Below, one piece after another: positions 1,407 through 34,228 of a stretch of DNA of 34,228 nucleotides (within the stretch, counting starts at the first letter, position 1; every line of letters starts with the position of its first letter). This DNA comes from Reyranella massiliensis 521 (GTDB taxonomy: Bacteria; Pseudomonadota; Alphaproteobacteria; Reyranellales; Reyranellaceae). The stretch spans positions 1 through 34,228 of the forward strand of contig CAMAYC010000046.1 of NCBI GenBank assembly GCA_945862125.1. Direction: 5' to 3'. Position numbers and translations under genes: made by a program. Below the pieces are notes generated by a model. That model was given only the letters and a program-made list of their open reading frames with translations. It was not told the DNA's origin and did not search any database.

Positions 1407-2393
1407 ATGCGTATTTGTGTGTTTGGCGCAGGCGCCATCGGCGGCAACTTCGCCGCGCGCCTGTCGGCGGCGGGCAACGAGGTCTCGGTGGTGGCGCGCG
1501 GCGCGCATCTCGATTCCATCCGCGCCCGCGGTCTCACGCTCTTGTCCGGCGACAAGCGCATCGTGGCGCCAGTCCGCGCCAGCGACCGGCCGGCCGATCT
1601 CGGGCCTCAGGACGCGGTGCTGGTGACCATGAAGTCGTCGGGCCTCGCGGTGTTGGCGGAAAATGTCGGCCCCTTGCTGCGTCCCGATACGCCGGTGGCG
1701 TTCGTGCAGAACGGCGTTCCCTGGTGGTACGGCCACGGCCTCGCCGCGTCCCGCCCGCCGGCGCCCGATCTGTCACGGCTCGACCCCGGCGGGGCGCTGG
1801 CCAAGGCCGTGGGCTTCGATCGCGCCGTCGGCGCCGTCGTCACCTCGTCCAACCACGTCATGGAGCCCGGCGTCGTGCGCAACGTCTCGCCCGATCGCAA
1901 CACGCTCTGGGTGGCCGAGACCGACGATCGCGCGAGCCCGCGCATCGATGCCCTGCGGGCGGCGCTGGTGGCGGCCGGCATTGCCTCGCCCGCCACGCGC
2001 GATATCCGCTACGACATCTGGCACAAGCTGATGGCCAATCTCACCGGATCGACGGTCTGCCTTATCCTGGGCCAGCCCACCACGATCCAGAAGACGGCCG
2101 AGATCAATCGGCTCTGTCGCCGGGCGCACGCCGAGGCCCTGGCCGTGGCGGCCGCCCACGGCGTCGTGCTCGACGACAGTCCGGAGCAGCGCTACGGCCC
2201 GAGCCGCGTCTATCCCGATCATCGCCCGTCGATCCTGCAGGATTATGAACTGGGCCGTCCGATGGAGATCGAATCCATTGTCCGGGCGCCACTGGCTTTT
2301 GCGCGTAGCGCCGGCATCGAGACGCCGACGCTCGACGCCATCGAAGCGCTCAGTGTCAGCATGGCAATCTCGAAAGGACTCTACGCGCCATGA
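1407..2393 (+). CDS. ketopantoate reductase family protein (2-dehydropantoate 2-reductase-like)
   Basis: A 328-residue NADP-dependent 2-hydroxyacid dehydrogenase of the ApbA/PanE family. Seen: the Rossmann GAGAIGG at residues 7-13, a QNGV block at 101-104, the WHKLMANL block whose Lys207 corresponds to the catalytic lysine, and SILQDYELGRPMEIES near 275-290 containing the substrate-binding Glu. AGAGGG lies just upstream of the start. It follows the ferredoxin by 11 nt and overlaps the next gene by 4 nt. The family includes true pantoate biosynthesis enzymes (panE) and many catabolic relatives. Its place in a cupin/ferredoxin/isomerase operon favours a catabolic 2-keto acid reductase over coenzyme A synthesis, so no gene symbol is given. 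Confidence 0.88.
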   Translation: MRICVFGAGAIGGNFAARLSAAGNEVSVVARGAHLDSIRARGLTLLSGDKRIVAPVRASDRPADLGPQDAVLVTMKSSGLAVLAENVGPLLRPDTPVAFVQNGVPWWYGHGLAASRPPAPDLSRLDPGGALAKAVGFDRAVGAVVTSSNHVMEPGVVRNVSPDRNTLWVAETDDRASPRIDALRAALVAAGIASPATRDIRYDIWHKLMANLTGSTVCLILGQPTTIQKTAEINRLCRRAHAEALAVAAAHGVVLDDSPEQRYGPSRVYPDHRPSILQDYELGRPMEIESIVRAPLAFARSAGIETPTLDAIEALSVSMAISKGLYAP

Positions 2394-3040
2394 CCCTCGG
2401 CTACGATCTATACTGGTCGTTCCGCTCTCCCTATTCGTATCTGGTCACGCCACGTCTGGTCGCCCTGGAGAAAGACTACGACGTCAAGGCCAACGTCCGC
2501 GTGGTCTATCCGATCGCGGTGCGCCAGCCGGACTTCTTCTCCAACAGCGACCCTCTCTGGTTCACCTACTTCCTGCGCGACGTGTTCCGCAGCGCCGAGT
2601 ATCTCGGCCTGCCGTTCTCCTGGGCCTCGCCCGATCCGGTGCTGATGGACCCCGCGACGCGCACCTATCCCAAGGAGCAGCCTTACATCCATCGTCTGAC
2701 ACGTCTCGGCCAGGTGGCGACCGAGCGTGGCAAGGGGTTGGCCTTTCTGAACGAAGTCAGCGGCACGATCTGGAGCGGCAAGGTCAAGAACTGGCATGAG
2801 GGCGACCACCTCGCGCGCGCCGCCGAACGCGCCGGGCTCGACCTCGCCGAGATGGACGCCATGGTCGCGGCGGAACCCGAGCGGCTCGACGCCATCATTG
2901 CCGCCAGCCAGGAAGCCCAGCGCGTGGGCGGGCACTATGGCGTGCCGTTGATGGTTTTCGATAGCGAGCCGTTCTTTGGGCAGGATCGTTTCGATCAGCT
3001 CAAATGGCGGATGCTGCAGAAGGGCCTGGTTAAGCGTTAG
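2390..3040 (+). CDS. DsbA-family / 2-hydroxychromene-2-carboxylate isomerase-like protein
   Basis: A 216-residue thioredoxin-fold protein of the kappa-GST/HCCA isomerase group. Seen: N-terminal SFRSPYSYL, in which Ser13 takes the place of the catalytic residue, an alpha-helical insertion domain, and the C-terminal cis-proline loop GVPLMVFDSEPFFGQDRF characteristic of the family. There is no CxxC, so it is not a disulfide oxidoreductase. Family members use glutathione as cofactor in isomerisation steps of aromatic breakdown. Its ATG overlaps the stop of the upstream gene (ATGA), so the two are coupled. Its stop overlaps, tail to tail, the stop of the EmrA gene on the other strand (3037-3040). 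Confidence 0.87.
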   Translation: MTLGYDLYWSFRSPYSYLVTPRLVALEKDYDVKANVRVVYPIAVRQPDFFSNSDPLWFTYFLRDVFRSAEYLGLPFSWASPDPVLMDPATRTYPKEQPYIHRLTRLGQVATERGKGLAFLNEVSGTIWSGKVKNWHEGDHLARAAERAGLDLAEMDAMVAAEPERLDAIIAASQEAQRVGGHYGVPLMVFDSEPFFGQDRFDQLKWRMLQKGLVKR

Positions 3041-4125
3041 GGCTTCGGCGCCTGTGAATCGTTGGCTTGCGCCGGCTTGCCGCTGAAGAACTGCGCTACG
3101 TCGCCGAGGCTGCGCTGGCGGCCGGTGTCGATGCTCACTGTCGCGGTCATGCCGGCGCGCAGCGGCGGTTCGCCCTGATGCGGCAACACGCGCAGCTTGA
3201 CCGGAAGGCGCTGCACGACCTTGACCCAGTTGCCGCTGGCATTCTGTGGCGGCAGGATCGAGAACTCGGCGCCGGTTGCCGGGCTCACGCTTTCGACCAC
3301 CGCCTCCCAGGCCGAGTCGGGATAGGTGTCGAGCACGATGCGCGCCCGCTGGCCGACGCGCACATGTGTGAGTTCGGTTTCCTTGAAATTCGCCTCGATC
3401 CACGGCCGGCTGAGCGCCACCACGGCGAACAGTGGCGTCGACGCCTTGACCTGTTCGCCGCGCTGGACGCGGAGGTTCACGACCACGCCATCGACCGGGG
3501 CACGCACCGTCGTTCGTGCGACGTCGAGCGCGGCGCGCTCGCGGGCGGCGGTCTTTTCGCGCACCATCGGATGCTCGTCGGCCGGCAGCTCGGGATTGCC
3601 GTTCAGCGCCGTCAGCACGCGCCGCAGTTTTTCCTTCACCGACGTCACGCGGTCGGCCGCGGTGCGCATGTCGTTCTGTGCCTCGTCGCGCTTGCTGGCG
3701 GAGAGGATGCCCTTGGTCGCCAGCTCCTCCTGGCGTTGCCACTGGCGCTGGGCATAGGCTGCCCGCGATTCGGCGTCGGCCAGTTCGCTCATGACCTCGC
3801 GCCAGGCACCGCGCAGGCTTTCGACATGCGCGCGTGCGGTGTCGAGTTCGGCTTCGGCACTGTCGAGCGCCAGCCGGAACGGCCGGGTCTCGAGGGTCAG
3901 CAGCGTATCGCCGGTCGAGACGGTGGCATGATCGAGCACCGGCACGCGGCGGACAGTGCCGGCCACCTCCGGCGCGATCTGCACGATGTGCGCCTTCACA
4001 TAGGCGTTCTCGGTGACGACGAAGCGACCGCCCGACAGCCACCAGTAACCCGCACCGACGGTGGCAATCACCGGCAGAACCACCAGCAGGACGAGGCGCC
4101 GCAGCGCCAGGGGACGGCGGCTCAT
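3037..4125 (-). CDS. emrA: EmrA/HlyD-family membrane fusion protein of an efflux pump
   Basis: A 362-residue periplasmic adaptor. Seen: an N-terminal membrane anchor (about residues 11-30), the lipoyl/barrel entry VTENAYVKAHIVQIAPEVAG, a long alpha-helical hairpin rich in Glu, Arg and Ala (about 85-165), the second lipoyl half (VRAPVDGVVVNLRVQRGEQV), and a beta-barrel section with WIEANFKETELTHVRVGQ. This order is standard for EmrA-type adaptors that link an inner-membrane MFS pump to an outer-membrane channel. Its ATG overlaps the stop of the marR gene (ATGA), so the two are one operon; the probable pump partner is transcribed divergently from 4719. No TolC-like gene is present. Confidence 0.92.
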   Translation of the reverse strand: MSRRPLALRRLVLLVVLPVIATVGAGYWWLSGGRFVVTENAYVKAHIVQIAPEVAGTVRRVPVLDHATVSTGDTLLTLETRPFRLALDSAEAELDTARAHVESLRGAWREVMSELADAESRAAYAQRQWQRQEELATKGILSASKRDEAQNDMRTAADRVTSVKEKLRRVLTALNGNPELPADEHPMVREKTAARERAALDVARTTVRAPVDGVVVNLRVQRGEQVKASTPLFAVVALSRPWIEANFKETELTHVRVGQRARIVLDTYPDSAWEAVVESVSPATGAEFSILPPQNASGNWVKVVQRLPVKLRVLPHQGEPPLRAGMTATVSIDTGRQRSLGDVAQFFSGKPAQANDSQAPKP

Positions 4126-6882: not shown

Positions 6883-8067
6883 ATGGACCAATCCATTTCG
6901 CCGTCCACGTCGTCGACGGCCCCCGAGACCAAGCCCGACGCTCGCGTTGGGGCCCTGCCGCGCCGGCGCCAGTGGGCGACCGGCCGCGGCCGTGCGCTGC
7001 TCCGTCCGCGCACCTTTGTCGTTGCCGCGGTCCTGTTGATCGCGCTCGCCTATGGCGGTCGCGAGCTCTACATGCGCTTCACCCACGTCTACGAGTACGA
7101 CGCGCGGGTGAGCGCCGACATCGTGACGATCTCCAGCCGAGGCGATGGCTGGGTGGTCGACATGTCGGTGCGCGAGGGCATGCACGTCGAGGCCGGTCAG
7201 GTGCTCGTGCGCGTCGACGACCGCATCGCCAGGCTGAAGGCCGACGGGCTGCGTGCGCAGATCGAGGGCATCAGGGTCGAGCGGTCGCGGCTGCGCGCCG
7301 AGCGCAAGCTCGACCAGAACCAGGCGGATGCGCAGATGCGCACGCGCATGTCGAACGTGACGGTGCGCGAGAAGGCCCTGGGCGCCCTGCGCGCCGATCT
7401 CGATTTCGCCAAGTTGGAGCTCGACCGCAGCCGTGCGTTGTTTGCCACGCGGGTCATCAACGAACGCCAGCTCCAGATGGCCCAGGCGGCGGTGACCAAG
7501 CTCGAGATCCAGATCCTGCAGCTCCAGGCCGAGCATCAGCAGGCCGAGGGCAGTCTCGACGAGGCCCGCGTCGGCCACGACCGGCTGGGCGTGATCGATG
7601 CCCAGATCGAGGCCCTCACGCATCAGGTCGCCAATCTCGCGGCCCAGCTCCACCAGCAACTCGTCGATGTCGAGGACCGCACCATCAAGAGCCCGATCCC
7701 GGCCGTGATCGACCGCACCTTCGTGCTGCCGGGCGAATACGTTGCCGCCGGCCAGCGCATCCTGCTGCTGCACAATCCCAAGGAAGTCTGGGTCGAGGCC
7801 AACATCAAGGAAACGCAGGTGAGCCGGCTGAAGCTCGGCCAGTTCGTGCATGTTTCCGTCGATGCTTTCCCCAACGATAAGTTCACCGGCAAGGTGGCGC
7901 GCATCGGCAGCGCCACCATGGCCCGCTTCGCGCTGATCCCGACGCCCAATCCCTCGGGCAACTTCACCAAGATAACCCAGCGCGTGGCGGTGAAGATCGA
8001 CATGGTCGAGATGCCGAAGCAACTCGCGCCCGGCATGATGGTCGAAGTCGACATTGACGTCCGTTAA
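6883..8067 (+). CDS. emrA: EmrA/HlyD-family membrane fusion protein (second efflux system)
   Basis: A 394-residue adaptor with a longer cytoplasmic tail than the one at 3037. Seen: a Pro/Arg-rich N-terminus, one membrane anchor (about residues 43-62), EYDARVSADIVTISSRGDGW opening the lipoyl/barrel domain, a long Arg/Glu/Gln-rich coiled-coil hairpin (about 105-250), the second lipoyl half, and VWVEANIKETQVSRLKLGQ in the barrel. ATG at 6883 follows the marR stop by 4 nt; a TTG start at 6862 is possible but would overlap marR. The 3' end overlaps the following emrB gene by 14 nt. It probably couples that pump to an outer-membrane channel encoded elsewhere. Confidence 0.92.
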   Translation: MDQSISPSTSSTAPETKPDARVGALPRRRQWATGRGRALLRPRTFVVAAVLLIALAYGGRELYMRFTHVYEYDARVSADIVTISSRGDGWVVDMSVREGMHVEAGQVLVRVDDRIARLKADGLRAQIEGIRVERSRLRAERKLDQNQADAQMRTRMSNVTVREKALGALRADLDFAKLELDRSRALFATRVINERQLQMAQAAVTKLEIQILQLQAEHQQAEGSLDEARVGHDRLGVIDAQIEALTHQVANLAAQLHQQLVDVEDRTIKSPIPAVIDRTFVLPGEYVAAGQRILLLHNPKEVWVEANIKETQVSRLKLGQFVHVSVDAFPNDKFTGKVARIGSATMARFALIPTPNPSGNFTKITQRVAVKIDMVEMPKQLAPGMMVEVDIDVR

Positions 8068-9682
8068 CGAACCCCTGCGCGGGGGGGCACTTCCGGGCGT
8101 CCCCTACCAGAACGCCGCCTACCTCGCCGAGCGCTATGGACCGGCCTACCGCTGGCTGGTCACGATCACCGGCATGGTGGGCGTCGTGTCGATGGTGCTG
8201 GCGATGACCACGGTCAACGTGGCGGTGCCCGACGTCATGGGCGCCTTCGGCATCGGTCAGGACAAGGCGCAGTGGATGTCGTCGGCCTATATGGCCACGA
8301 TGACCGCCGGCATGCTGCTGAACGCCTGGATGTCGGGCGTTCTGGGCGAGCGCCGCACCTTCATCGGCGCGCTGTTCTTCTTTTCGGCCGGCGCACTGCT
8401 GGGCGGCATGGCGCCGAACGAGGATGTGCTGATCTTCGCCCGCATCCTCCAGGGTTTCAGCGCCGGCATCGCCCAGCCGCTGGTGATGGCCACCATCTTC
8501 ACCGTCTTCCCGGCCGAGCGGCGCGGCTCCGCGATGGGCATCTTTGGCCTCGGCGTCGTGTTCGCGCCGGCGATCGGCCCGACCCTGGGCGGCCTGATGA
8601 TCGAGTACTTTTCCTGGCGCTATGTCTTCTACATCTCGCTGCCATTCTGCGGCATCGCGGCCCTGATGGGCGCCTTTTTCATGCCGACCCGGCCGCTGGC
8701 GCGCGAGATCCCGCCGTTCGACTGGTTGGGCTTTGCGCTGCTCTGCGTCGGCCTGTGGGGCTTGATGACCGGCATTGCCGACGGCCAGCGCGAAGGCTGG
8801 TCCTCCGACGTCATCGTGGTCCACCTGGTGCTGGGCACCGCCGCCGCCGTGGGCTTCGTGCTGTGGGAGCTCTACACGCCGCGCGCACTGCTCGACATGC
8901 GCATCTTCGCCAATCTCGAGTTCGCCTCGGCGGCGGTGATCGCCTTCATCTTCGGCGCCGGCATGATGGGCTCGACCTACGTCATCCCGGTGTTCGTCCA
9001 GACCATGATCGGGTTCACGCCGCTGTTGGCCGGCCTGATGATGATGCCGGCCGGGCTGATGCTGGCCGTCATCTTTCCGCTGGCCGGGCGTCTCTCGGAC
9101 GCGATGCCGGCTTCGTTCATGATCATCGGCGGTCTGATACTGTTTGCGGCTGGGTTCGCCCTGATGGTCACGGCCGATGCCGATACGACGTTCTGGACAC
9201 TGGTCGGCATGGTGATGGTCTCGCGGCTGGGCCTCGGCTTCATCAACCCCAGCCTCAACGCCACCGCGCTGAAGGCGCTGCCGGCCGACAAGGTCCGCCA
9301 GGGCGCCGGCGTGGCCAACTTCATGCGCCAGCTCGGCGGCGCCTTCGGCATCAACCTGATCGTGGCCTTCTTCGAGGTCCGAACGCGCTTCCATGCCGAT
9401 GCGCTGACCGCTACCCAGGACTGGGGCAACCGCACCACCGAGCGCCTGCTGTTCCAGATGGAGCAGCTCATGCAGCGCTCGGGCCTGCCGTTCCAGCAGC
9501 AGAAGGCGGCGGCGCTGGAGTTCCTCGGCCAGATGGTGAACGCCCAGGCCCAGATGCTGGCTTTCTCCGACACGTTCATCGTGATTGCCATCGTGGCGCT
9601 GCTTGCGCTGATCCCGGCCGCGTTGCTGTCGCGTTCGCAGCAGAAGAGTCCGATGACCCGCCTGGCGCTGGGGCGGCGCTAG
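8054..9682 (+). CDS. emrB: EmrB/QacA-family (DHA2) MFS efflux transporter (second system)
   Basis: A 542-residue transporter with about 14 membrane segments. Seen: MTTVNVAVPDVMGAFG in the first helix region, motif C-like GVVFAPAIGPTLGG, FSWRYVFYISLPFCG, and a long periplasmic loop near the C-terminus (about residues 455-500). The only start that gives the full first loop is the TTG at 8054, within the end of emrA, so translation is probably coupled; the next in-frame ATG is about 40 residues later and would shorten the cytoplasmic N-terminus. Its stop overlaps tail to tail with the ABC permease gene (9679-9682). Exported substrate unknown. Confidence 0.92.
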   Translation: MTSVNEPLRGGALPGVPYQNAAYLAERYGPAYRWLVTITGMVGVVSMVLAMTTVNVAVPDVMGAFGIGQDKAQWMSSAYMATMTAGMLLNAWMSGVLGERRTFIGALFFFSAGALLGGMAPNEDVLIFARILQGFSAGIAQPLVMATIFTVFPAERRGSAMGIFGLGVVFAPAIGPTLGGLMIEYFSWRYVFYISLPFCGIAALMGAFFMPTRPLAREIPPFDWLGFALLCVGLWGLMTGIADGQREGWSSDVIVVHLVLGTAAAVGFVLWELYTPRALLDMRIFANLEFASAAVIAFIFGAGMMGSTYVIPVFVQTMIGFTPLLAGLMMMPAGLMLAVIFPLAGRLSDAMPASFMIIGGLILFAAGFALMVTADADTTFWTLVGMVMVSRLGLGFINPSLNATALKALPADKVRQGAGVANFMRQLGGAFGINLIVAFFEVRTRFHADALTATQDWGNRTTERLLFQMEQLMQRSGLPFQQQKAAALEFLGQMVNAQAQMLAFSDTFIVIAIVALLALIPAALLSRSQQKSPMTRLALGRR

Positions 9683-23470: not shown

Positions 23471-24253
23471 CTACTGCATGAACCAGCCGTGGCTGACGAC
23501 GGCCGACTGGCCACTGTGCACTGTGTTCCGGGCGGCGGCATAGAACAGCACGGCATCGGCCACGTCGTCGGTGGTGGTGAACTGGCCGTCGATCGTGTCC
23601 TTCAGCATGACGTTCTTGATCACGTCGGCTTCGGAGATCTTCAGTTCCGCGGCCTGCTCGGGAATCTGCTTTTCCACCAGCGGCGTACGCACGAAGCCCG
23701 GGCACACGACGTTGGACGAGACGTTGAACTCCGCGCCTTCCTTGGCCAGCACCTTGGAGAGGCCGATGAGGCCGTGCTTTGCGGTGACATAGGGTGCCTT
23801 GAGCTTGGAAGCTTCCTTGGAGTGCACCGAGCCCATGTAGACGACGCGGCCGTACTTGGCGGCGTACATGTGCTTCAGGCAGGCCTTGGTGGTGAGGAAG
23901 GCGCCGTCGAGATGGATCGACAGCAGCTTCTTCCAGTCGGCGAACGGGAAGTCGACGATCGGCTTGACGATCTGGATGCCGGCGTTGCTGACCAGGATGT
24001 CGATCTTGCCGTACTTGGCCATGGTGTCGGCCACGCCCTTCTCGACCTGGGCCTCGTCGGTCACGTTCATGGCGACGGCGAAGGCATCGCCTCCCTTGGC
24101 CTTGATCTCGGCCGCGGTCTTGCTGGCGGCATCGAGGTTGAGGTCGGCGATCACCGGGATGCCGCCTTCGGCTGCGAGGCGGAGGGCGATTTCCTTGCCG
24201 ATGCCGCTGGCGGCGCCGGTGACGATGGCAACTCTTCCTGTGAAACGTGACAT
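23471..24253 (-). CDS. bdhA: D-3-hydroxybutyrate dehydrogenase
   Basis: A 260-residue SDR of the 3-hydroxybutyrate dehydrogenase type, interconverting acetoacetate and (R)-3-hydroxybutyrate with NAD. Seen: TGAASGIG (12-19), the SNAGIQ block (89-94), catalytic Ser142, Tyr155 and Lys159 (APYVTAKH), and the long helical insertion [20 protein letters not shown] characteristic of this enzyme, ending in SHGWFMQ. AAGGA precedes the ATG. It lies 30 nt downstream of acetoacetate decarboxylase, so the two act on the same metabolite, acetoacetate, in polyhydroxybutyrate breakdown. Confidence 0.92.
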
Positions 24254-24283
24254 GACTCGATCCTTCTTTGTCTCTGTGGCGGA

Positions 24284-25039
24284 TTATTTGGCGAGATAGT
24301 CGAACACAACTTCACCCAGACCCAGCGTCAGGTCGGTGACGTAGTGGGTGGCCGAAAGGACCTCGCGGACGGGCAGGCGGTTCACGTCGCACATGGCGTG
24401 GTCGAAGAACTGCAGCGCGGCCGGGCCTGCCCATGCGCCCTTCAGCGTCACGTCCTTGCAGTAGTAACGGACCAGCTCGCAGATGCGCGGTGTGCCATCG
24501 ACGTGCGGGATGATCTTGATCATGAAGGCGGGCTTGGCGAGGCCCGCCAGGATCGGCGCTGGATCGATCTCGCGATGCTTGTAGCCCATGGTCGCCGTGA
24601 CGCAGAGCACCGAGCCGTAATGCAGGGTGCCGAGCAGTGTCTCGCTCTCGTGGCTCACCTTGGGCGTGGCGAGCTTCTTGGGGAAACCCCAGATCTCGCG
24701 GCCGCCGGCGATCGGTGAATTGTCGTCGAGGTACATGGCGTGGACGTAGCCGCCTTCCTGCACCACGCCGTCCTTGCCCGTGAAACGGACGGGGATCACC
24801 TGGCCGGTCTCGGTGTAGTCGCCGAAGCCGGTCGAATCGGGCATGCGGATGAATTCGTAGTTCACCGTGTCGCCGAGCGGCTCCAGCGGCTCGGGCACGA
24901 CCGACCTCAGGCGTTCGGGGTCGGTGCGGTAGCTGATGACGATGAATTCGCGGTTGTAGAATTTGTAGGGCGGTCGCGGATACGCCGGATCGTTGAGCGG
25001 CATCGCGAAGGCGTTCTTGCGGACATCGGCTATTTTCAT
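24284..25039 (-). CDS. adc: acetoacetate decarboxylase
   Basis: A 251-residue enzyme converting acetoacetate to acetone and CO2. Seen: [14 protein letters not shown], where Lys121 aligns with the Schiff-base Lys115 of the Clostridium enzyme and Lys122 with its neighbour Lys116; REF at 30-32 and YEFIR at 61-65 supply the usual Arg and Glu residues. A GAGG site lies 7 nt before the ATG. Its start overlaps the patatin gene (ATGA) and it is followed by 3-hydroxybutyrate dehydrogenase, forming a ketone-body operon. Some family members act on other 3-oxo acids, so the precise substrate should be taken as likely. Confidence 0.93.
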
Positions 25040-26193
25040 CGTTTGGCCTCCTCGCGGCCCTGCCGGGCGAGATCGAAGGTGAATACGCCATCGGCGCTTT
25101 GCGGGCGCTGAAGAACCTCGGGATGGCGGAGCGTGTTGATCATGTCGTCGTAGCCGGACTTCCAGTGTTCTTCCATCGTCCGGCGCGAGAATTCGTAGTC
25201 CTTGGACGCGCCCTCGTACTTCTTGGCGTGATAGATCAGATGGATGATGTTGTAGACCTTGGTGTCGGCCTCCTGTGCGAGGATCTCGGCCTCGGGTGAC
25301 TGGCGTACCTCACCCGGCATTTGTGCCAAAAGCTTGGCCGCGGCGCGCCGCACCGCCTGCATCCTGCGGAACTGGTCGGTGCCGGCGCGGGTGCGGCTCG
25401 AATAGCGGATGTCCTTCTGTCGCACGTCGACTTCGATCATATCGCGCGGCAGCTCGCCGCTGGCGCTCCACAGGTCGACCTGGAAGGCGAGCGTGTCCTG
25501 GCGCGGCCGGGCATCGAGCACCCATTGCAGCGGCGTGTTGGAGACGATGCCGCCGTCCCAGTAGAACTCGCCGTCGATCTCGGTAGCGGGAAAGCCCGGC
25601 GGTAGCGAGCCGCTGGCCACGACATGGGCGGTGGCGATCTTGTGCGTCTTGTTGTCGAAATAGGCGAAGTTGCCGGTCCTGACGTTGGTGGCGCCGACGC
25701 TGAAGCGGGTCTCGCCCGCATTGATCCGGTCGAAATCCACCAGGCTCTCGAGCAGCGTCTTGAGCGGCGAGATGTCGTAGAAGCTGAGGTTCCCGGGATT
25801 GCCGGCCGGCGTGAAGATCGGCGGCGGAAAGCGCGGCTTGAAGAAGCTGGGTGCGCCCATCAGCATGATGCCCAGGGCGCGCCACTGGTTCACGATCTGG
25901 TGCTGCATGTCGTTCTGGATCGTGAGTCCCGGCATGTAGGGGATGCCGAGGGGCGGGGCCGTCACCGCCTCCCAGAAGGCACGCAGCTTCTCGACCCGCT
26001 GCTCCGGCGGATTGCCGGCGATCAGCGCCGAATTGATGGCGCCGATCGAGATACCGGCGACCCAGTCCGGGTGGAGATTGGCCTCGGCCAGCGCCTGGTA
26101 GGCACCGGCCTGATAGGAGCCCAGCGCGCCGCCGCCCTGGAGGAGGAGCGCGATGCGCTCGAATTCGGGGCGCGTTGCGGGCTTGGAATTCAT
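25036..26193 (-). CDS. patatin-like phospholipase with DUF3734 C-terminal domain
   Basis: 385 residues. Seen: the oxyanion loop [20 protein letters not shown], nucleophile motif GISIG with Ser49, and the dyad Asp213 in [11 protein letters not shown]; the C-terminal third (about 265-385, with [19 protein letters not shown]) corresponds to DUF3734. Such proteins hydrolyse acyl esters. In alphaproteobacteria they are regularly found with acetoacetate decarboxylase and 3-hydroxybutyrate dehydrogenase, and may act on polyhydroxybutyrate granules or lipids (inference). ATG 26193 has an AAGGAG site; the frame is open further upstream without one. First gene of the operon; the 176-nt gap to 26370 holds the divergent promoters, not resolved. 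Confidence 0.92.
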
Positions 26194-26369
26194 GGTGTGT
26201 CTCCTTCGCAGCGGAACCGCCGCGGCGATGACTTCTGACCTGCCGTCTACGCGACGGCAATGACGATTCCGCAATTTCCGGACCGATCCGGGCGCGTCAC
26301 TTCCTCGCCATCAATATATTTGCACGATATTGTGTACATTAGGGTGGTGGGATCTATCCGAGAGGGCGC

Positions 26370-29295: not shown

Positions 29296-29745
29296 CTAGA
29301 TCCTGGTATTCCAGGGGTTCATGCTGACGGCCATCCTGACGCCCGTGAACGTCGATACGCCATGCGATATTCCCGGAGAGAACATGACCAATCTGTTCGT
29401 CTTCGGGAAAAGCCTTATGTCGTCGGTGTAGAGTTCGCCGCCGTTCATGTTGTCGACCAACGGATAGTAGACGGCGCTGCACTGCGGGAAGACCAGGATC
29501 TTCTTCTCGGCATACAGCCTCTCATCCTTGTCGAGGTGCCATCCGGGATTTTCCTTGTTGGACCACATTTCGTAGCCGACGATGCTTTCCAGATCGAAGT
29601 GAACCCGGCACACGTCGAGTATCTTTTCCTGGATCGGATTGGCGCCGAGATCGTACCATTTCTCGCCGACGCCATAGTCGAACGCGGCGAATGCCCGGAC
29701 TGTCGCGCTGTCGAAGACATCATCGAGAATAATGAATTTATCCAT
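29296..29745 (-). CDS. small Fe(II)/2-oxoglutarate oxygenase (third of four)
   Basis: 149 residues, short for the family, but with a complete active site. Seen: GWHLDKDERLY with His70 and Asp72, VYYPLVDNMNGGELYTDD, SPGISHGVSTFTGVRMAVSM with His128 and Arg137. It lacks the N-terminal helices seen in larger prolyl hydroxylases. The start lies 44 nt downstream of the stop of the phytanoyl-CoA-type oxygenase gene, on the same strand, so the two probably form one operon. Compact enzymes like this are known in natural-product pathways (inference). No ribosome site better than AGG is visible. Confidence 0.8.
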   Translation of the reverse strand: MDKFIILDDVFDSATVRAFAAFDYGVGEKWYDLGANPIQEKILDVCRVHFDLESIVGYEMWSNKENPGWHLDKDERLYAEKKILVFPQCSAVYYPLVDNMNGGELYTDDIRLFPKTNRLVMFSPGISHGVSTFTGVRMAVSMNPWNTRI

Positions 29746-29789: not shown

Positions 29790-30572
29790 TCAGCGGACGT
29801 GGGCAAAGAGACTCTGCCGGTCTTCGGGAACCCGTGCGAGGAAATCACCGTCGAACACAAGGCGTGGCTGCGTCGCCTTCACGAAGTTGATGGTATCTTG
29901 GTACCAGCGCCGCGCATAGGTCGCGTAGAGTATCGGTCGATGGACCTCGGAGCGGTTGGCCGTGCCGCCATGAAAAAGTCTGAAGTCCCAAAGGGCGCAC
30001 GATCCCACGGGTATCTGCGGCGCTTCCGGCGCCGCCTGCTCGTCACGCTCCCTCCAGCGATGGCTGCCGGGCCAGATGGCGGTAGTTCCATGGACGTCGT
30101 TCATGTCTATCAACGGCATCACAAGCGTCAGCGCATGTGCCGGAAGTATCGGCGAAATCGCCGCATCGAACAGCAAGCGGCCGTCGCGGTGGATGTGCTG
30201 TGCCCTGGCGCCCGGCAGCGATATGACCGCGCCGAAGCTTTCGAGGATGGCGTCCAGGTCGAGCGCCTTGCGCACCACGGCGACGACGAAGGGATGCGCG
30301 TAAACGAGAGGGTCGCCGAAGGCGCCTGAAAGGTCGATCGGCACCATGAAGCGCCGGTTGCCGACTTTCCTTGTGTCCTCAAGTTCCTGATTCTGCAGAT
30401 ATTTCGTGTAACGCCGGTTGAATTCGAGATTCATGTCTCGAACTTTGTCTTCCGGGAGCACATGATCGAGGATTGCATAGCCATTCTTGACGAGGCAATT
30501 ATAGGCTTGCTGAACTTGCTCCGACTTGGCGAGGTCCTCCGTCGACAAGCCACGGCAGTCGAACCTCATCAT
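29790..30572 (-). CDS. phytanoyl-CoA dioxygenase (PhyH) family oxygenase (fourth of four)
   Basis: 260 residues. Seen: N-terminal CLVKNGYAILDHVLPEDKV typical of the PhyH family, QHIHRDGRLLFDAA with His128 and Asp130, GTTAIWPGSHRW, DFRLFHGGTANRSEVHRP with His201 and Arg212. PhyH enzymes hydroxylate lipids, amino acids or natural products with Fe(II) and 2-oxoglutarate. Tandem ATGs at 30572 and 30569 have no clear ribosome site; the open frame extends to a TTG at 30698, which would overlap the divergent kinase gene and is not preferred. It diverges from the kinase/lasso operon and leads an operon with the oxygenase at 29296. Confidence 0.86.
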   Translation of the reverse strand: MMRFDCRGLSTEDLAKSEQVQQAYNCLVKNGYAILDHVLPEDKVRDMNLEFNRRYTKYLQNQELEDTRKVGNRRFMVPIDLSGAFGDPLVYAHPFVVAVVRKALDLDAILESFGAVISLPGARAQHIHRDGRLLFDAAISPILPAHALTLVMPLIDMNDVHGTTAIWPGSHRWRERDEQAAPEAPQIPVGSCALWDFRLFHGGTANRSEVHRPILYATYARRWYQDTINFVKATQPRLVFDGDFLARVPEDRQSLFAHVR

Positions 30573-30660
30573 GGCTGCCGAGTGGCTTTTTGCACGATCA
30601 TGGTGGTGGCTTCCGGATGAAGAGACATAGTCCGTCCCCTGAGTGGCGGCGGAAAGTTCA

Positions 30661-31692
30661 GTGCCCCAATTTGAAGCGGATTTGAAGGTGTTTGCCAAGT
30701 TTTCTGAGAAGCACGGCGACCGGGATGTTCCGGCGGCAGGCCGCTATCGGCACGTCGTCTATGGCATCGTGGTGGAAAGCGAGTTCCGGTTGAATTCGGT
30801 CGACGAGGTTTCGGTTGGCGCGTCGGAAGGGAACTCGGATGTGTCGATCAGGGTACGTTTCGGATCGGCCGACTATTTCCGCGGCAAAACGGACGGGCTG
30901 CCGGAGGATTTAGACGACTGGATTCGGCATGTCGTGCTGGCGGATGGCAGCGTCTATGTGAAGGTCGATGGTGTTTTCGAAACCGTCATCTCTCCGGACG
31001 GTCGATCCGTCGTCTGCGCGCGGCTGGGCAATGCTGACCAAAGATCGTTCGAGGCGAATTTGATGAACTTCGTCTTCAGCACTGCACTCACGTTGCGGGG
31101 CGAGGAGCCGCTCCATGCGACGGTCCTCGACCTCGACGGACGCGCCATCGGCTTGCTGGGCTGTAGTGGCGCCGGAAAGTCGACCCTTGCCGCGTTTCTG
31201 ATCGCGCAGGGGGCGGAGTTGGTCACCGACGACATGCTGCGGCTGACCTTTGCCGACACTCTGGCCTTTGCCCATTATGGGCCCCATCGACTCAAACTCT
31301 TCGACGAACCTGCCCAGCGGTTCTTGCCGGGAAGAGTGAGCGACGGCCACTTCAATCCGCTCAGCGGCAAGATCATGATCCCCCCGCATGACATGGTGCG
31401 CCCCCGTCGCGAGCCACTCCGGCTTGCGGCGCTGTTCTGCCTCGACGAGCTGCACGAGCAGCCAGCGTCCGACGCGGTATTCATGCGTCGGCTTGCCGGC
31501 AACGACCTGCTGCAGACGCTGACGTCATCGGCCATGAACAAGCGGTATTGTGCTCCCGAGCGATTGATGCGGCAGTTTCGGTTCGCCGAGCGCTTGGCGC
31601 ACACTTTGCCGGTTTACGCGCTGAACTACGCGAGACGCTATACGCTGCTGGACCGGGTCGGCGAGGAAATCCGCCGACTGGTTCACCCATGA
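30661..31692 (+). CDS. HprK-like serine kinase of a lasso-peptide-type cluster
   Basis: 343 residues. Seen: an N-terminal domain of unknown fold (about 1-140) with YGIVVESEFRLNSV, then an HPr-kinase-like domain: LHATVLDLDGRAIGLLGCSG, Walker A GCSGAGKST (Lys173), and VTDDMLRL with Asp190/191. HprK-like kinases of this sort occur in lasso-peptide gene clusters; characterised ones (e.g. PadeK, and SyanK of Sphingobium) phosphorylate a C-terminal Ser of the precursor. GTG 30661 (with GGAAAG) is chosen; GTG 30643 is an alternative. Its stop overlaps the next start (ATGA). Regulatory HPr kinase itself is less likely because no HPr/PTS gene is nearby. Confidence 0.83.
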   Translation: MPQFEADLKVFAKFSEKHGDRDVPAAGRYRHVVYGIVVESEFRLNSVDEVSVGASEGNSDVSIRVRFGSADYFRGKTDGLPEDLDDWIRHVVLADGSVYVKVDGVFETVISPDGRSVVCARLGNADQRSFEANLMNFVFSTALTLRGEEPLHATVLDLDGRAIGLLGCSGAGKSTLAAFLIAQGAELVTDDMLRLTFADTLAFAHYGPHRLKLFDEPAQRFLPGRVSDGHFNPLSGKIMIPPHDMVRPRREPLRLAALFCLDELHEQPASDAVFMRRLAGNDLLQTLTSSAMNKRYCAPERLMRQFRFAERLAHTLPVYALNYARRYTLLDRVGEEIRRLVHP

Positions 31693-32138
31693 GACGCGTT
31701 GCGGCATTCCTTGCCCTGCCGGGCAGCGATCGGTTCCTGCTGCTCGAGGCTTTTGCGACCATCGCCGCGGTCCGCGTCGCTCTCCACCTGACCTCTGTCG
31801 ATCGATTGCGTTCCTGGGCTGCGCGCGTGAAACCGGGAACAGGATCGGTCGACAGAATTTCCTGGGCCGTCCGCGTGGCATCCCGCCTGCTGTCTGGCAC
31901 AACGTGCCTGGGCTCGGCGCTTGTTCTGCAGCGTCTTCTCTCGATGCAAGGCCACGCCTCCGAACTTCACATCGGCGTCGCCAAGCAGGACCAGCGCTTT
32001 GCCGCTCACGCCTGGGTCGTCTGCGAAGGCCGGATCCTCATGGGCGACGACGAGCACGACGGCTACACGCGGCTGCTAACCTGGAAATCGGCGGAATCGT
32101 CAGATTTGCCTGCCCCTGCCAAATCCGATCCGGGCTGA
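31689..32138 (+). CDS. lasso peptide biosynthesis B2 protein (transglutaminase-like protease)
   Basis: 149 residues of the Transglut_core3 family, the leader-peptide protease of split-B lasso peptide pathways. Seen: GTTCLGSALVLQRLLSMQG with catalytic Cys73, LHIGVAKQDQRFAAHAWVVCEG with His107, and an Asp (120) right after GRILMGD. The conserved AHAWV block is a hallmark of B2 proteins. Coupled to the kinase by ATGA and followed after 2 nt by the cyclase gene. The C-terminal 20 residues are polar and likely disordered. Together with B1 it should cut the leader from a precursor peptide. Confidence 0.88.
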   Translation: MRRVAAFLALPGSDRFLLLEAFATIAAVRVALHLTSVDRLRSWAARVKPGTGSVDRISWAVRVASRLLSGTTCLGSALVLQRLLSMQGHASELHIGVAKQDQRFAAHAWVVCEGRILMGDDEHDGYTRLLTWKSAESSDLPAPAKSDPG

Positions 32139-32140
32139 GA

Positions 32141-33916
32141 TTGTTCGCCGCCGTTCTCAACTTCGACGGCACACCCGTTGACCCCCAAGAGCTCGCCGGC
32201 GCCGGCGATGTCGTCGAGATCGTTGGTCGATCGCGTCGAGTCGCTTTCATTTGCTCACGGCCGGAACCCGAAGCGGCCGGCGAGGAGTCATGCGGCATTC
32301 AGAGCCTTGGCGGCCGATACTGGATCGTGGGCCGCATCCGGCTCGACGCCGGCCGCGAGCTCCGGTCGCGGTTGGCAGCCCGACTCGGAAGCCGACCGGA
32401 TGCAATCTCCGATCCGCTGCTCTGCCTGCACGCCTATGCGGCGTGGGGTGAAAACTTCGTCGACTTTCTCGCCGGCGATTTTTGCTTTGCCCTTTGGGAC
32501 GACGAACGAAGCCGCCTGATCTGCGCGCGCGATCAGCTGGGCGTGCGCTCGCTGTTTCATGCCGAGGCTGGAAATTCCCGGTTCGTCGGCGATTCGCTCG
32601 ACTGGATCGTTTCCCACGCCCCAGCCGACCGGGACCTCGACGACTACTGGATTGCCGATTTTCTCAGCGGCGGGCACAGCCTCGATTTCGATCGAACGGT
32701 CTACCGGCACATTCGTCGGATTCCGCCGGCCCATGTCCTGACATTTTCCGACGGTGGCGCGAGCGTCCGCAGATACTGGCGGCTGGAGATCGGCGAACCG
32801 CTCCAGTATCGCGACCGCCGACAGTATAGCGAGCGGTTCCTCGAGTTGATGTCCCGAGCGCTGGCCGACCGCCTGCCTGCCGGCAGGGTGGGCATTTCGA
32901 TGAGCGGCGGTCTCGATTCAACGACGCTGGCGGCCTGCGCCGTGCGCAGCACGGGCGACGCGTCGCGCGTGCTGGCGGAGTGCATCCACTACGAGAGGTT
33001 GATGCCGGACGACGAAAAGCACTTCAGTTCGCTCGCCGCTCGACACCTGGGCATAGAGTTGCAGTTCAGGGCCGCTGACGACCTTACCTACGATCCGCAG
33101 TGGCGCTCGCGCGAGATCGGCAGTGCCGAGCCGTCCCTGTCCATCATCTGCGCACACCCCAATCGCATCGCGGGTCGCGAACAGGCGGGCAGGGCGCGTG
33201 TCTGGCTTCATGGTGAGGGGCCCGACAATGCCCTCGTCTTCGAGCGTGGGCCCTACTTTTCCTGGCTGCTGCAACGTCGGGACTGGCCGCGGATCGCCGA
33301 AGCGGCCTGGCTTTACGTCGCGGCAAAAGGCTTCAAAGGTTGGGCCGAGACTTTGCGGCGCTATGTCGGGCGACGCGCCGTCGTTCACGATCCGGGCGTA
33401 TTGCCATCGTGGCTCGACCGGACCCTCGTGGACCGTCTGGACCTCGCGGAACGCATGCGCAGCGCCGACGCACCGAGGGAGCCTCGTCACCCTTGGCATC
33501 CGCGCGCCGTTGTCTGGTTCGGCGATCCCGTCTGGCAGAGTGTCTTCGCCGATTTCGATTTCGAGGAGTCGCTGGCGCCGATCTTCTGGCGTCATCCCTA
33601 TCTCGACCTCCGGGTGCTGGAATTCATGTTGTCGGTGCCACCTGTGCCGTGGGCGAGGGAAAAGTTGCTGCTGCGCGAGGCCATGCGCGGCGTGCTTCCC
33701 GAGCCGATACTCGCCCGCCGGAAAACGCCGCTGGCGGAGTCACCGCGCGTGCAGCCTATTCGAACGCATGGTCTTCCCGGATTGTCGCGGAACGATCGGT
33801 TGAGCCGGTATGTCGACATCCGCGCCCTGCCGCTCGAACCGCCTCCCGATCCCGGCCTCGATCGGCTGATTGCCGTTCATGCGCTCGATCACTGGCTGAC
33901 CCAGCGTGCATTGTAA
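32141..33916 (+). CDS. asparagine-synthetase-like lasso cyclase (C protein)
   Basis: 591 residues. Seen: an N-terminal glutaminase-like domain (about 1-210, including GDFCFALWDDERSRLICARD and GVRSLFH) and a C-terminal ATP-pyrophosphatase domain with SMSGGLDSTTLAACA (Ser255-Ser260, the AMP-forming loop) and a PxxWAREKLLLREAMRGVLP helix. True asparagine synthetases begin with a catalytic Cys2; here the start reads FAAVLNFDG without it, as expected for lasso cyclases, which activate an Asp/Glu side chain rather than use glutamine ammonia. TTG 32141 is used because no ATG exists nearby. It lies between B2 and B1. Confidence 0.85.
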   Translation: MFAAVLNFDGTPVDPQELAGAGDVVEIVGRSRRVAFICSRPEPEAAGEESCGIQSLGGRYWIVGRIRLDAGRELRSRLAARLGSRPDAISDPLLCLHAYAAWGENFVDFLAGDFCFALWDDERSRLICARDQLGVRSLFHAEAGNSRFVGDSLDWIVSHAPADRDLDDYWIADFLSGGHSLDFDRTVYRHIRRIPPAHVLTFSDGGASVRRYWRLEIGEPLQYRDRRQYSERFLELMSRALADRLPAGRVGISMSGGLDSTTLAACAVRSTGDASRVLAECIHYERLMPDDEKHFSSLAARHLGIELQFRAADDLTYDPQWRSREIGSAEPSLSIICAHPNRIAGREQAGRARVWLHGEGPDNALVFERGPYFSWLLQRRDWPRIAEAAWLYVAAKGFKGWAETLRRYVGRRAVVHDPGVLPSWLDRTLVDRLDLAERMRSADAPREPRHPWHPRAVVWFGDPVWQSVFADFDFEESLAPIFWRHPYLDLRVLEFMLSVPPVPWAREKLLLREAMRGVLPEPILARRKTPLAESPRVQPIRTHGLPGLSRNDRLSRYVDIRALPLEPPPDPGLDRLIAVHALDHWLTQRAL

Positions 33917-33971
33917 CGCGGTAGCGCCGGGGGTAACGTGCCGGTCATCGATGACACCAGGGACATTTCAT

Positions 33972-34228
33972 ATGCTAGAGCCCTCGACAGTCGTGAAAAA
34001 AACCTCAAGCCAGGTTTCCTGCGTCCTCAACGACGAGGTCGCCGTACTGAATGTCGATCGCGCCCTCTATTTCGGGCTGCAGGGTGTCGGAGCACATATT
34101 TGGGACGCCCTGGAGCAGGCCCGGTCGGTCTCCGACATTTGCGACGATGTCGTGGCCCATTTCGACGTTGCCCCGGAAACCTGTCGCGACGATGTGACCA
34201 AATTCCTCGCGAGCATGCATGAGGCGGG
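33972..34228 (+). CDS. PqqD-like RRE protein (lasso peptide B1), 3' end beyond the window
   Basis: The first 85 residues of a PqqD-family recognition-element protein. Seen: VSCVLNDEVAVLNVDRALYF, LQGVGAHIWDALEQARSVSD and ICDDVVAHFDVAPETCRDDV, which follow the winged-helix PqqD pattern (LYFxLNxxGxxIWxxL). Such proteins bind the leader peptide and deliver it to the B2 protease. ATG 33972 has an AGGGA site 8 nt upstream; the gap from the cyclase (33917-33971) shows no gene. In most split-B clusters B1 is next to B2; here C lies between them. The gene and perhaps a precursor continue past the edge. Confidence 0.88.
   Translation, partial: MLEPSTVVKKTSSQVSCVLNDEVAVLNVDRALYFGLQGVGAHIWDALEQARSVSDICDDVVAHFDVAPETCRDDVTKFLASMHEA

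What the first reader, a model, noticed from the sequence alone, without database searches (positions are those of the whole stretch)
30661..34228. Kinase-containing lasso-peptide-type cluster with order kinase-B2-C-B1
Four overlapping or closely spaced genes encode an HprK-like kinase, a B2 transglutaminase-like protease, an asparagine-synthetase-like cyclase and a PqqD-like RRE. This set defines a lasso peptide pathway with a phosphorylation step. The gene order, with C between B2 and B1, differs from the usual adjacent B1-B2 layout as I remember it, and the host seems not to be a typical sphingomonad producer.
Basis: partly seen in the sequence, partly recalled or inferred. Interest (0 to 1): 0.82.

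Follow-up and report, generated by a model that had tools for sequence, protein, structure and literature searches.

The report
Reyranella kinase-tailored lasso peptide cluster
This is a real gene cluster for making a small knotted peptide that is probably phosphorylated, in a bacterium of the genus Reyranella; it belongs to a known kind but has its own conserved gene order and lacks both known phosphorylation sites, which points to a new one.

Summary
Confirmed and extended. The window (a whole contig) ends inside a lasso-type cluster: HprK-like kinase K (30643-31692), peptidase B2 (31689-32138), cyclase C (32141-33916), RRE B1 (33972 on). Its last 149 bases are the first 149 of another contig of the same genome, which completes B1 and carries the missing precursor A (core SAGKSKGPDGGKGKSPRRTG, Thr at -2, Asp9), a nucleotidyltransferase-like N, and an ABC transporter. 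The genus is Reyranella. Order K-B2-C-B1-N recurs in 20 non-redundant Reyranella-type loci (18 assigned to the genus, 2 in unnamed MAGs) and in 0 of 31 other four-gene loci, where B1 and B2 are adjacent in 30.

K+N lasso clusters are known (pseudomycoidin, Bradymonas bsf), so this is a new variant of a known kind. What seems new: the core has neither published kinase acceptor (C-terminal Ser; Ser3). Instead all 32 collected Reyranella-type precursors share a tail Thr, which I predict is phosphorylated and perhaps glycosylated. A PhyH-like Fe/2OG oxygenase often lies divergently beside K. Some genomes carry extra C-containing sets but only one detected K and B2. Product, threading and acceptor are inferred, not shown.

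The parts
30643..31692 (+). K, HprK-like lasso-peptide kinase (start codon uncertain, 30643-30745)
   Evidence: (H158, G173, G178, K179, S180, D196, D197, K243 invariant in 25 sequences)
31689..32138 (+). B2, transglutaminase-like leader peptidase (Cys73, His107 invariant in 23 sequences)
32141..33916 (+). C, asparagine-synthetase-like macrolactam cyclase (TTG start; SGGLDST motif; no Cys at the N-terminus)
33972..34228 (+). B1, PqqD-like RRE, cut by the contig end; completed to 91 aa on contig C219 (L008:1-168)
   Evidence: Precursor A (L008:317-490), N (L008:565-1725) and ABC transporter D (L008:1722-3440, minus) follow there, outside the window
29790..30587 (-). PhyH-like Fe(II)/2-oxoglutarate oxygenase, divergent from K; predicted tailoring enzyme
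   Evidence: HxD...H kept in 17 of 19 sequences, this one included; found in 17 of 37 genus genomes, within 200 bases of K in 15, about 1 kb from a K fragment in G010, at a contig edge in G009
29296..29745 (-). OG2, weak 2OG-Fe(II) oxygenase relative (under Pfam cut-off), candidate accessory tailoring gene
   Evidence: also in L043, L049, L059, L060
28646..29257 (+). OG3, 2OG-Fe(II) oxygenase, candidate accessory gene
   Evidence: also in L059
27899..28570 (-). OG4, FlmC-related 2OG-Fe(II) oxygenase (under that family's cut-off), candidate accessory gene
   Evidence: also in L043, L049, L059, L060
26370..27902 (+). Methyltransferase with MethyTransf_Reg domain, candidate accessory gene
   Evidence: also in L040, L041, L044, L049, L059, L061, L065

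Best explanation
A Reyranella RiPP cluster for a lasso-type peptide with a tailored tail. B1 binds the YxxPxL leader of A. With its help K phosphorylates the linear precursor, most likely on the conserved tail Thr (Thr19 of core SAGKSKGPDGGKGKSPRRTG). N then adds a sugar or nucleotide to that phosphate. B2 cuts after Thr(-2)-Gln(-1). C activates Asp9 with ATP and joins it to the amino group of Ser1, giving a 9-residue ring, presumably threaded. D exports the product. The PhyH-like oxygenase probably hydroxylates a core residue before cyclisation. Shown here: the genes, catalytic motifs, precursor motifs, conserved order and linkage. Inferred by analogy with paeninodin, pseudomycoidin, bsf and canucin: each enzymatic step. 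Inferred from conservation alone: Thr as acceptor.
For: Genes and families. Window and C219 share 149 bases found nowhere else in the genome. Precursor: Y(-17), P(-14), L(-12), T(-2), D9, the published B1-recognition spacing (PMC10368454 passages). In 32 Reyranella-type precursors: T(-2) 31, D9 28 (D10 in 4), tail xT[RGSN] 32, while C-terminal Ser is in 5 and residue 3 is Gly in 25. Of 21 tails without TGRGG, 21 have Thr in the last four residues; shuffled mean 8.4, 0 of 20,000 as high. An objective rescan with no condition on -2 or tail gave 33 hits in these loci: two look like chance, the other 31 all have T(-2) and a tail xT[RGSN]. K keeps H-G-G-GKS-DD with the spacing published for BsfK. 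K is in 22 of 37 genus genomes, all among the 24 with C.
Against: No product, transcript or assay. C and K fall under the curated cut-offs of the closest NCBIfam models, B1 under those of the narrow lasso RRE models, and the precursor passes none. The window core tail has no F/Y/W/M/I/L to act as a plug, so threading is doubtful. Outside this lineage the tail Thr is looser: Thr in the last five residues in 34 of 55 hits, shuffled mean 23.6. K-less sets (L042, L046, L047, L063) keep the tail Thr too. No precursor was found between B1 and N in L043, L045, L052 or L053.
Confidence: 0.72

Rival explanations
1. The product is an unthreaded branched-cyclic peptide (lariat without a knot), because the Gly/Lys-rich tail has no bulky plug residues.
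For: The window tail has no F/Y/W/M/I/L; 12 of 32 Reyranella-type tails, the window's included, have none, counted from core residue 11.
Against: B1, B2 and C are the lasso set, and I recall no unthreaded natural product of such a set; Arg17/Arg18 or a modified Thr19 could serve as plug; the other 20 of 32 tails do hold such residues.
Confidence: 0.2
2. K acts on a different core residue (ring Ser/Thr at positions 1, 4, 5 or 8), and the conserved tail Thr serves another purpose such as export or target binding.
For: [quoted passage not shown] Ser/Thr is common at core positions 1 (16 of 32) and 5 (14 of 32); sets without K keep the tail Thr.
Against: No single position from 1 to 10 carries Ser/Thr in more than 16 of 32 precursors, against 32 of 32 for the tail Thr; the K-less sets lie in genomes that hold a K elsewhere.
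Confidence: 0.3
3. A linear polyphosphorylated peptide (LPP-like) pathway rather than a lasso pathway; C and B2 are relics.
For: K, N, RRE and transporter are part of the LPP core set in Bacillota (passages of PMC13381572).
Against: B2 and C are open with conserved catalytic residues, keep company with K across 20 loci, and the precursor has T(-2) and D9; LPP clusters use an SpI-type peptidase and no cyclase.
Confidence: 0.05
4. The 2OG oxygenases and methyltransferase upstream are unrelated neighbours, not tailoring genes.
For: PhyH was not found at E <= 1e-30 in 8 of 24 genomes with C; OG2, OG3, OG4 and the methyltransferase occur only in subsets.
Against: PhyH sits divergently within 200 bases of K in 15 of the 17 genomes that have it; the other two are inside a cluster (G010) and at a contig edge (G009).
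Confidence: 0.35

Closest known systems
Pseudomycoidin (psm, Bacillus pseudomycoides; PsmK, PsmN), known to me through passages of reviews PMC9266682 and PMC8498205
   Same: Lasso set plus HprK-like kinase and nucleotidyltransferase-like gene; phosphate plus hexose on the tail
   Different: Acceptor is a C-terminal Ser, absent here; different phylum; no PhyH partner mentioned in the passages
bsf of Bradymonas sediminis (PMC10368454, passages)
   Same: A, B1, B2, C, D, K, N; kinase motif with the same spacing; B1 assists the kinase
   Different: Ile(-2), Gly1-Asp8 ring and Ser3 acceptor; here Thr(-2), D9, and Gly3 in the window and 25 of 32 precursors
Paeninodin / ThcoK / SyanK (reviews only; the JBC and Chem Sci originals I tried are not held)
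   Same: HprK-like kinase acting on a lasso precursor; SyanK is proteobacterial
   Different: C-terminal Ser acceptor; here C-terminal Gly with Thr before it
B1-B2-C-K(-N) loci of Acidobacteriota, Cyanobacteriota and others found here
   Same: Same genes, and in several a similar core style (xVGxxGxxDGG with a late Thr)
   Different: B1 and B2 adjacent before C, K after C
Soil metagenome BGC 482.1 (PMC9064862, passages)
   Same: Kinase gene beside B2, then C and A genes downstream
   Different: Order B1-kinase-B2-C-A; the kinase is annotated as aminoglycoside-phosphotransferase family, not HprK
Canucin hydroxylase CanE (review PMC9266682, passages)
   Same: Fe/2OG enzyme tailoring a lasso precursor with help of B1
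   Different: From Streptomyces; here the enzyme is PhyH-type, substrate unknown
Linear polyphosphorylated peptides, LPP (PMC13381572, passages)
   Same: K, N, RRE, transporter
   Different: No cyclase and no B2 in the LPP set; SpI peptidase instead

Membership tests
Lasso peptide biosynthetic cluster | B2 transglutaminase-like peptidase with Cys-His | tested here: met
   NF033537 over cut-off; Cys73 and His107 invariant in 23 sequences
Lasso peptide biosynthetic cluster | RRE (B1) of the lasso type | tested here: met
   PqqD Pfam over cut-off; best solved relative TbiB1, E 5.4e-11; below the cut-offs of the narrower lasso_PqqD models
Lasso peptide biosynthetic cluster | Asparagine-synthetase-like cyclase | tested here: met
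   Asn_synthase over cut-off; best NCBIfam hit lass_lactam_cya but under its cut-off, 182 against 525
Lasso peptide biosynthetic cluster | Precursor with YxxPxL leader, Thr(-2), Asp/Glu at core 7-9 | tested here: met
   L008:317-490: Y(-17), P(-14), L(-12), T(-2), D9; no NCBIfam precursor model over cut-off
Lasso peptide biosynthetic cluster | Threaded lariat product | not testable with these tools
   needs MS, NMR or ion mobility
Phosphorylated (paeninodin-type) lasso peptides | HprK-like kinase with intact H / GxxGxGKS / DD | tested here: met
Phosphorylated (paeninodin-type) lasso peptides | C-terminal Ser acceptor | tested here: not met
   window core ends in Gly; C-terminal Ser in 5 of 32 Reyranella-type precursors
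Bradymonas bsf type | Ser/Thr at core position 3, Ile/Val(-2) | tested here: not met
   Gly3 and Thr(-2) in the window; Ser/Thr at 3 in 2 of 32, T(-2) in 31 of 32
Phosphoglycosylated lasso peptides (pseudomycoidin type) | Nucleotidyltransferase-like gene in the cluster | tested here: met
   L008:565-1725, PF14907 1.4e-54; not compared with PsmN itself
Phosphoglycosylated lasso peptides (pseudomycoidin type) | Hexose on the phosphorylated residue | not testable with these tools
   needs expression and MS
LPP (linear polyphosphorylated peptides) | No cyclase and no B2 (SpI peptidase instead) | tested here: not met
   B2 and C present beside K; I did not search for SpI

The most novel reading that the evidence does not exclude
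In this lineage the kinase and nucleotidyltransferase make the mechanical lock: a tail without bulky residues is threaded through the ring, and the phosphorylated (and glycosylated) tail Thr is the plug that keeps it there. One K and one B2 then serve several cyclase-precursor sets in a genome, so one kinase/peptidase pair locks a family of basic peptides.
Probability: 0.12. Interest if true: 0.78.

Novelty: new variant of a known kind. Interest (0 to 1): 0.45.

Why it matters
Lasso kinases described in the passages read here use the C-terminal Ser or Ser3. A coherent family whose precursors mostly lack both but all keep a tail Thr gives a direct test of where such kinases can act, and whether the modification has a structural role in a tail without plug residues. 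It also ties a PhyH-type oxygenase to lasso clusters and gives natural cases in which one peptidase and one kinase may serve several cyclase sets. Two relatives are named strains by their record titles (Reyranella massiliensis 521, R. aquatilis KCTC 52223); no precursor was found between B1 and N in the R. massiliensis cluster, so R. aquatilis is the better one to try.

Tried and rejected
Chimeric assembly as the cause of the odd order: rejected, since the order recurs in 19 other non-redundant loci. A second precursor in the same genome: only weak hits. No relative of C in viral contigs; in plasmids 5 records, under 30% identity. Promoter and terminator scan of 30450-30800: nothing. B2 has no solved relative by sequence or profile. 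The careful cyclase tree did not finish, so the tree cited is the quick one, and the kinase tree did not run. The class survey of K found 38 of 385 genomes at E <= 1e-15, with at most 6 candidates per genome scored; of the 35 outside the genus I fetched one stretch each from 19. None of the 19 shows K-B2-C-B1, though several lack some of the four genes in the stretch. Foldseek hits for the kinase rank PEPCK above HPr kinase; I take this as the shared fold, not as function. First precursor statistics were off by one residue; one search replaces them. Only the bulky-residue counts are used (from core residue 11). A count on 24 other-phylum precursors picked by eye (Thr in the last five in 17) was replaced by the objective rescan (34 of 55), which is weaker. 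Searches in print for Reyranella with lasso (4 papers), Reyranella with RiPP clusters (1), lasso with phosphothreonine (4) and lasso with phytanoyl or Fe/2OG (2) gave listings with nothing on this cluster by title and abstract start; I did not open those papers.
Full report
What was claimed. All of this holds as far as sequence can tell.

Anatomy in the window. K 30643-31692 (start uncertain), B2 31689-32138 overlapping it by ATGA, C 32141-33916 from a TTG, B1 from 33972 to the end. B2 is over the curated cut-off for lasso B2, B1 over that for PqqD, C over that for Asn_synthase; K matches the HPr kinase C-terminal domain below cut-off. With a 25-sequence profile K hits HPr kinases at 1.3e-9. 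Its predicted structure (mean pLDDT 86.9) matches the PEPCK/HPr-kinase fold, PEPCK ranking first. K residues H158, G173, G178, K179, S180, D196, D197 are invariant and G176 nearly so; the spacing equals that reported for BsfK, H148-G163-G166-G168-K169-S170-D186-D187 (passages of PMC10368454).

Beyond the window. The window is the whole contig C46. Its last 149 bases equal the first 149 of contig C219 and occur nowhere else in the genome. C219 completes B1 (91 aa; nearest solved relative TbiB1). Then come, in the same direction, precursor A (317-490) with AAAGAGG upstream and N (565-1725, NTP_transf_5 1.4e-54), and on the other strand an ABC transporter (1722-3440). The join is not proved by reads, but B1, A and N in this order in relatives support it.

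Precursor. MDAQSTKNDSPHDPSSAKKPYVAPVLVQWGTLRDMTQ / SAGKSKGPDGGKGKSPRRTG. Y, P, L and T sit at -17, -14, -12 and -2, the spacing stated in PMC10368454, which suggests the cut and puts Asp at core 9. NCBIfam lasso precursor models match below cut-off only.

Host. Contigs of same-genus relatives match by length those of Reyranella aquatilis KCTC 52223, Reyranella massiliensis 521 and other Reyranella records. The window's own record is unnamed.

Conservation. C was found in 24 of 37 genus genomes, own included (E <= 1e-20). K is in 22 of 37, all among those 24. B2 is strong in 22 of 37, one per genome; there is also a contig-edge fragment in G006 and a weak hit in the C-less G023 (which scored 114 candidates of 129-337 per genome, so further copies could be missed). 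One search tallied 108 loci plus the window. K-B2-C-B1-N on one strand appears in 27 loci plus the window. In L043, L045 and L060 oxygenase genes lie between K and B2. Six further Reyranella-type loci (some duplicates) are K-C-B1-N without B2. Among loci outside this type with all four genes on one strand, 31 in all, none has the order; B1 and B2 are adjacent in 30, and 25 are B1-B2-C-K with or without N. A further genus genome (G393) also has the order; of 19 other alphaproteobacterial K stretches none does. In the quick cyclase tree the 13 Reyranella-type rows plus a Methylocystaceae and a Porphyrobacter locus, both with K before B2 and C, form a group with SH-aLRT 100, inside a multi-phylum set.

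The acceptor question. In the passages I read, lasso kinases act on a C-terminal Ser (PadeK, ThcoK, SyanK, PsmK) or on Ser3 (BsfK), and LppK on Ser3 of a linear peptide. I collected 32 Reyranella-type precursors: 22 chosen by eye from the short frames between C and N, 10 by a pattern that itself asks for T/I/V at -2 and an acid near 7-9; L089, a near-copy of L059, was left out. Of 32, T(-2) 31, D9 28, D10 4, C-terminal Ser 5, Gly3 25, Ser/Thr3 2, tail xT[RGSN] 32. Of 21 without the TGRGG form, Thr lies in the last four residues in 21, against a shuffled mean of 8.4 (0 of 20,000). An objective rescan (Y/W(-17), P(-14), L-like(-12), a Gly near -8, an acid at core 7-10, nothing asked of -2 or tail) gave 33 hits in these loci; two do not resemble lasso precursors and look like chance, the other 31 all have T(-2) and tail xT[RGSN]; it missed L051 and L057. 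Elsewhere it gave 55 hits, a few evidently chance: T(-2) in 51, Thr in the last five residues in 34 (shuffled mean 23.6; 6 of 5000 as high), Ser or Thr there in 47. These sequences are related, so shuffles overstate independence. Beside alphaproteobacterial K genes outside the genus, 6 of 7 plausible precursors that I picked by eye end in Ser. I therefore predict the tail Thr as acceptor, at about even odds or a little better. Against it: sets without K keep the Thr too, though the genomes of L042, L046, L047 and L063 (G015, G029, G035) hold a K elsewhere.

Oxygenase. A PhyH-like Fe/2OG enzyme (29790-30587, minus; nearest solved relative kanamycin B dioxygenase, 5.8e-13) lies divergently beside K. 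At E <= 1e-30 it occurs in 17 of 37 genomes: within 200 bases of K in 15, in G010 about 1 kb from a K fragment, and in G009, which has no detected C, at a contig edge next to OG2. Eight of 24 genomes with C lack it at that threshold. HxD and the distal His are kept in 17 of 19 sequences, the window's included; one L043 copy and the L060 copy have lost both His. Fe/2OG hydroxylation of a lasso precursor with B1's help is known for CanE. Substrate and site here are unknown.

Shared enzymes. G015 has three C loci, G029 and G035 two each, but one detected K and one detected B2 each. L042 and L047 carry C-B1-A-N (B1 broken in L047), L046 C and A, L063 C and two A. In G005 and G028 the K locus lacks B2, and a lone B2 lies on another contig with none of the searched lasso genes in the fetched 15 kb. 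So B2, and in the first three genomes K, would have to work in trans. This is inferred.

Assessment. The cluster is real and, if the join holds, complete across two contigs; it is a new variant of a known kind. The order is a conserved lineage trait but has no mechanistic meaning by itself. The testable novelty is the acceptor residue and the possible role of its modification in a tail without plug residues.

Noticed in passing
L043 (one of two PhyH copies) and L060 (about 7720-8859): PhyH relatives that have lost the metal-binding His residues, so probably inactive oxygenase paralogues kept in the cluster; in L060 it lies between K and B2.
   Followed up: partly
L042, L046, L047, L063: Extra cyclase-precursor sets without K and B2 in genomes with one detected K and one detected B2 elsewhere.
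   Followed up: partly
L059, L062, L069, L084, L087, L089: K-C-B1-N loci with no B2 between K and C; in G005 and G028 a lone B2 sits on another contig.
   Followed up: partly
L052, L053, L043, L045: Clusters with no recognisable precursor between B1 and N.
   Followed up: no
L040 2534-2752, L041 12827-13310: Additional precursors lie upstream beyond the methyltransferase gene, far from the main A gene, with the same core pattern.
   Followed up: no
L134, L139, L119: Loci of other phyla with two precursors side by side after C.
   Followed up: no
window 23471-26274: Short-chain dehydrogenase, acetoacetate decarboxylase and patatin genes in a row mark the likely left border of the cluster.
   Followed up: no
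L005 / L009 (G000 contig C60): A second asparagine-synthetase-like gene in the genome scores against the lasso cyclase model, below cut-off; neighbourhood not studied.
   Followed up: no
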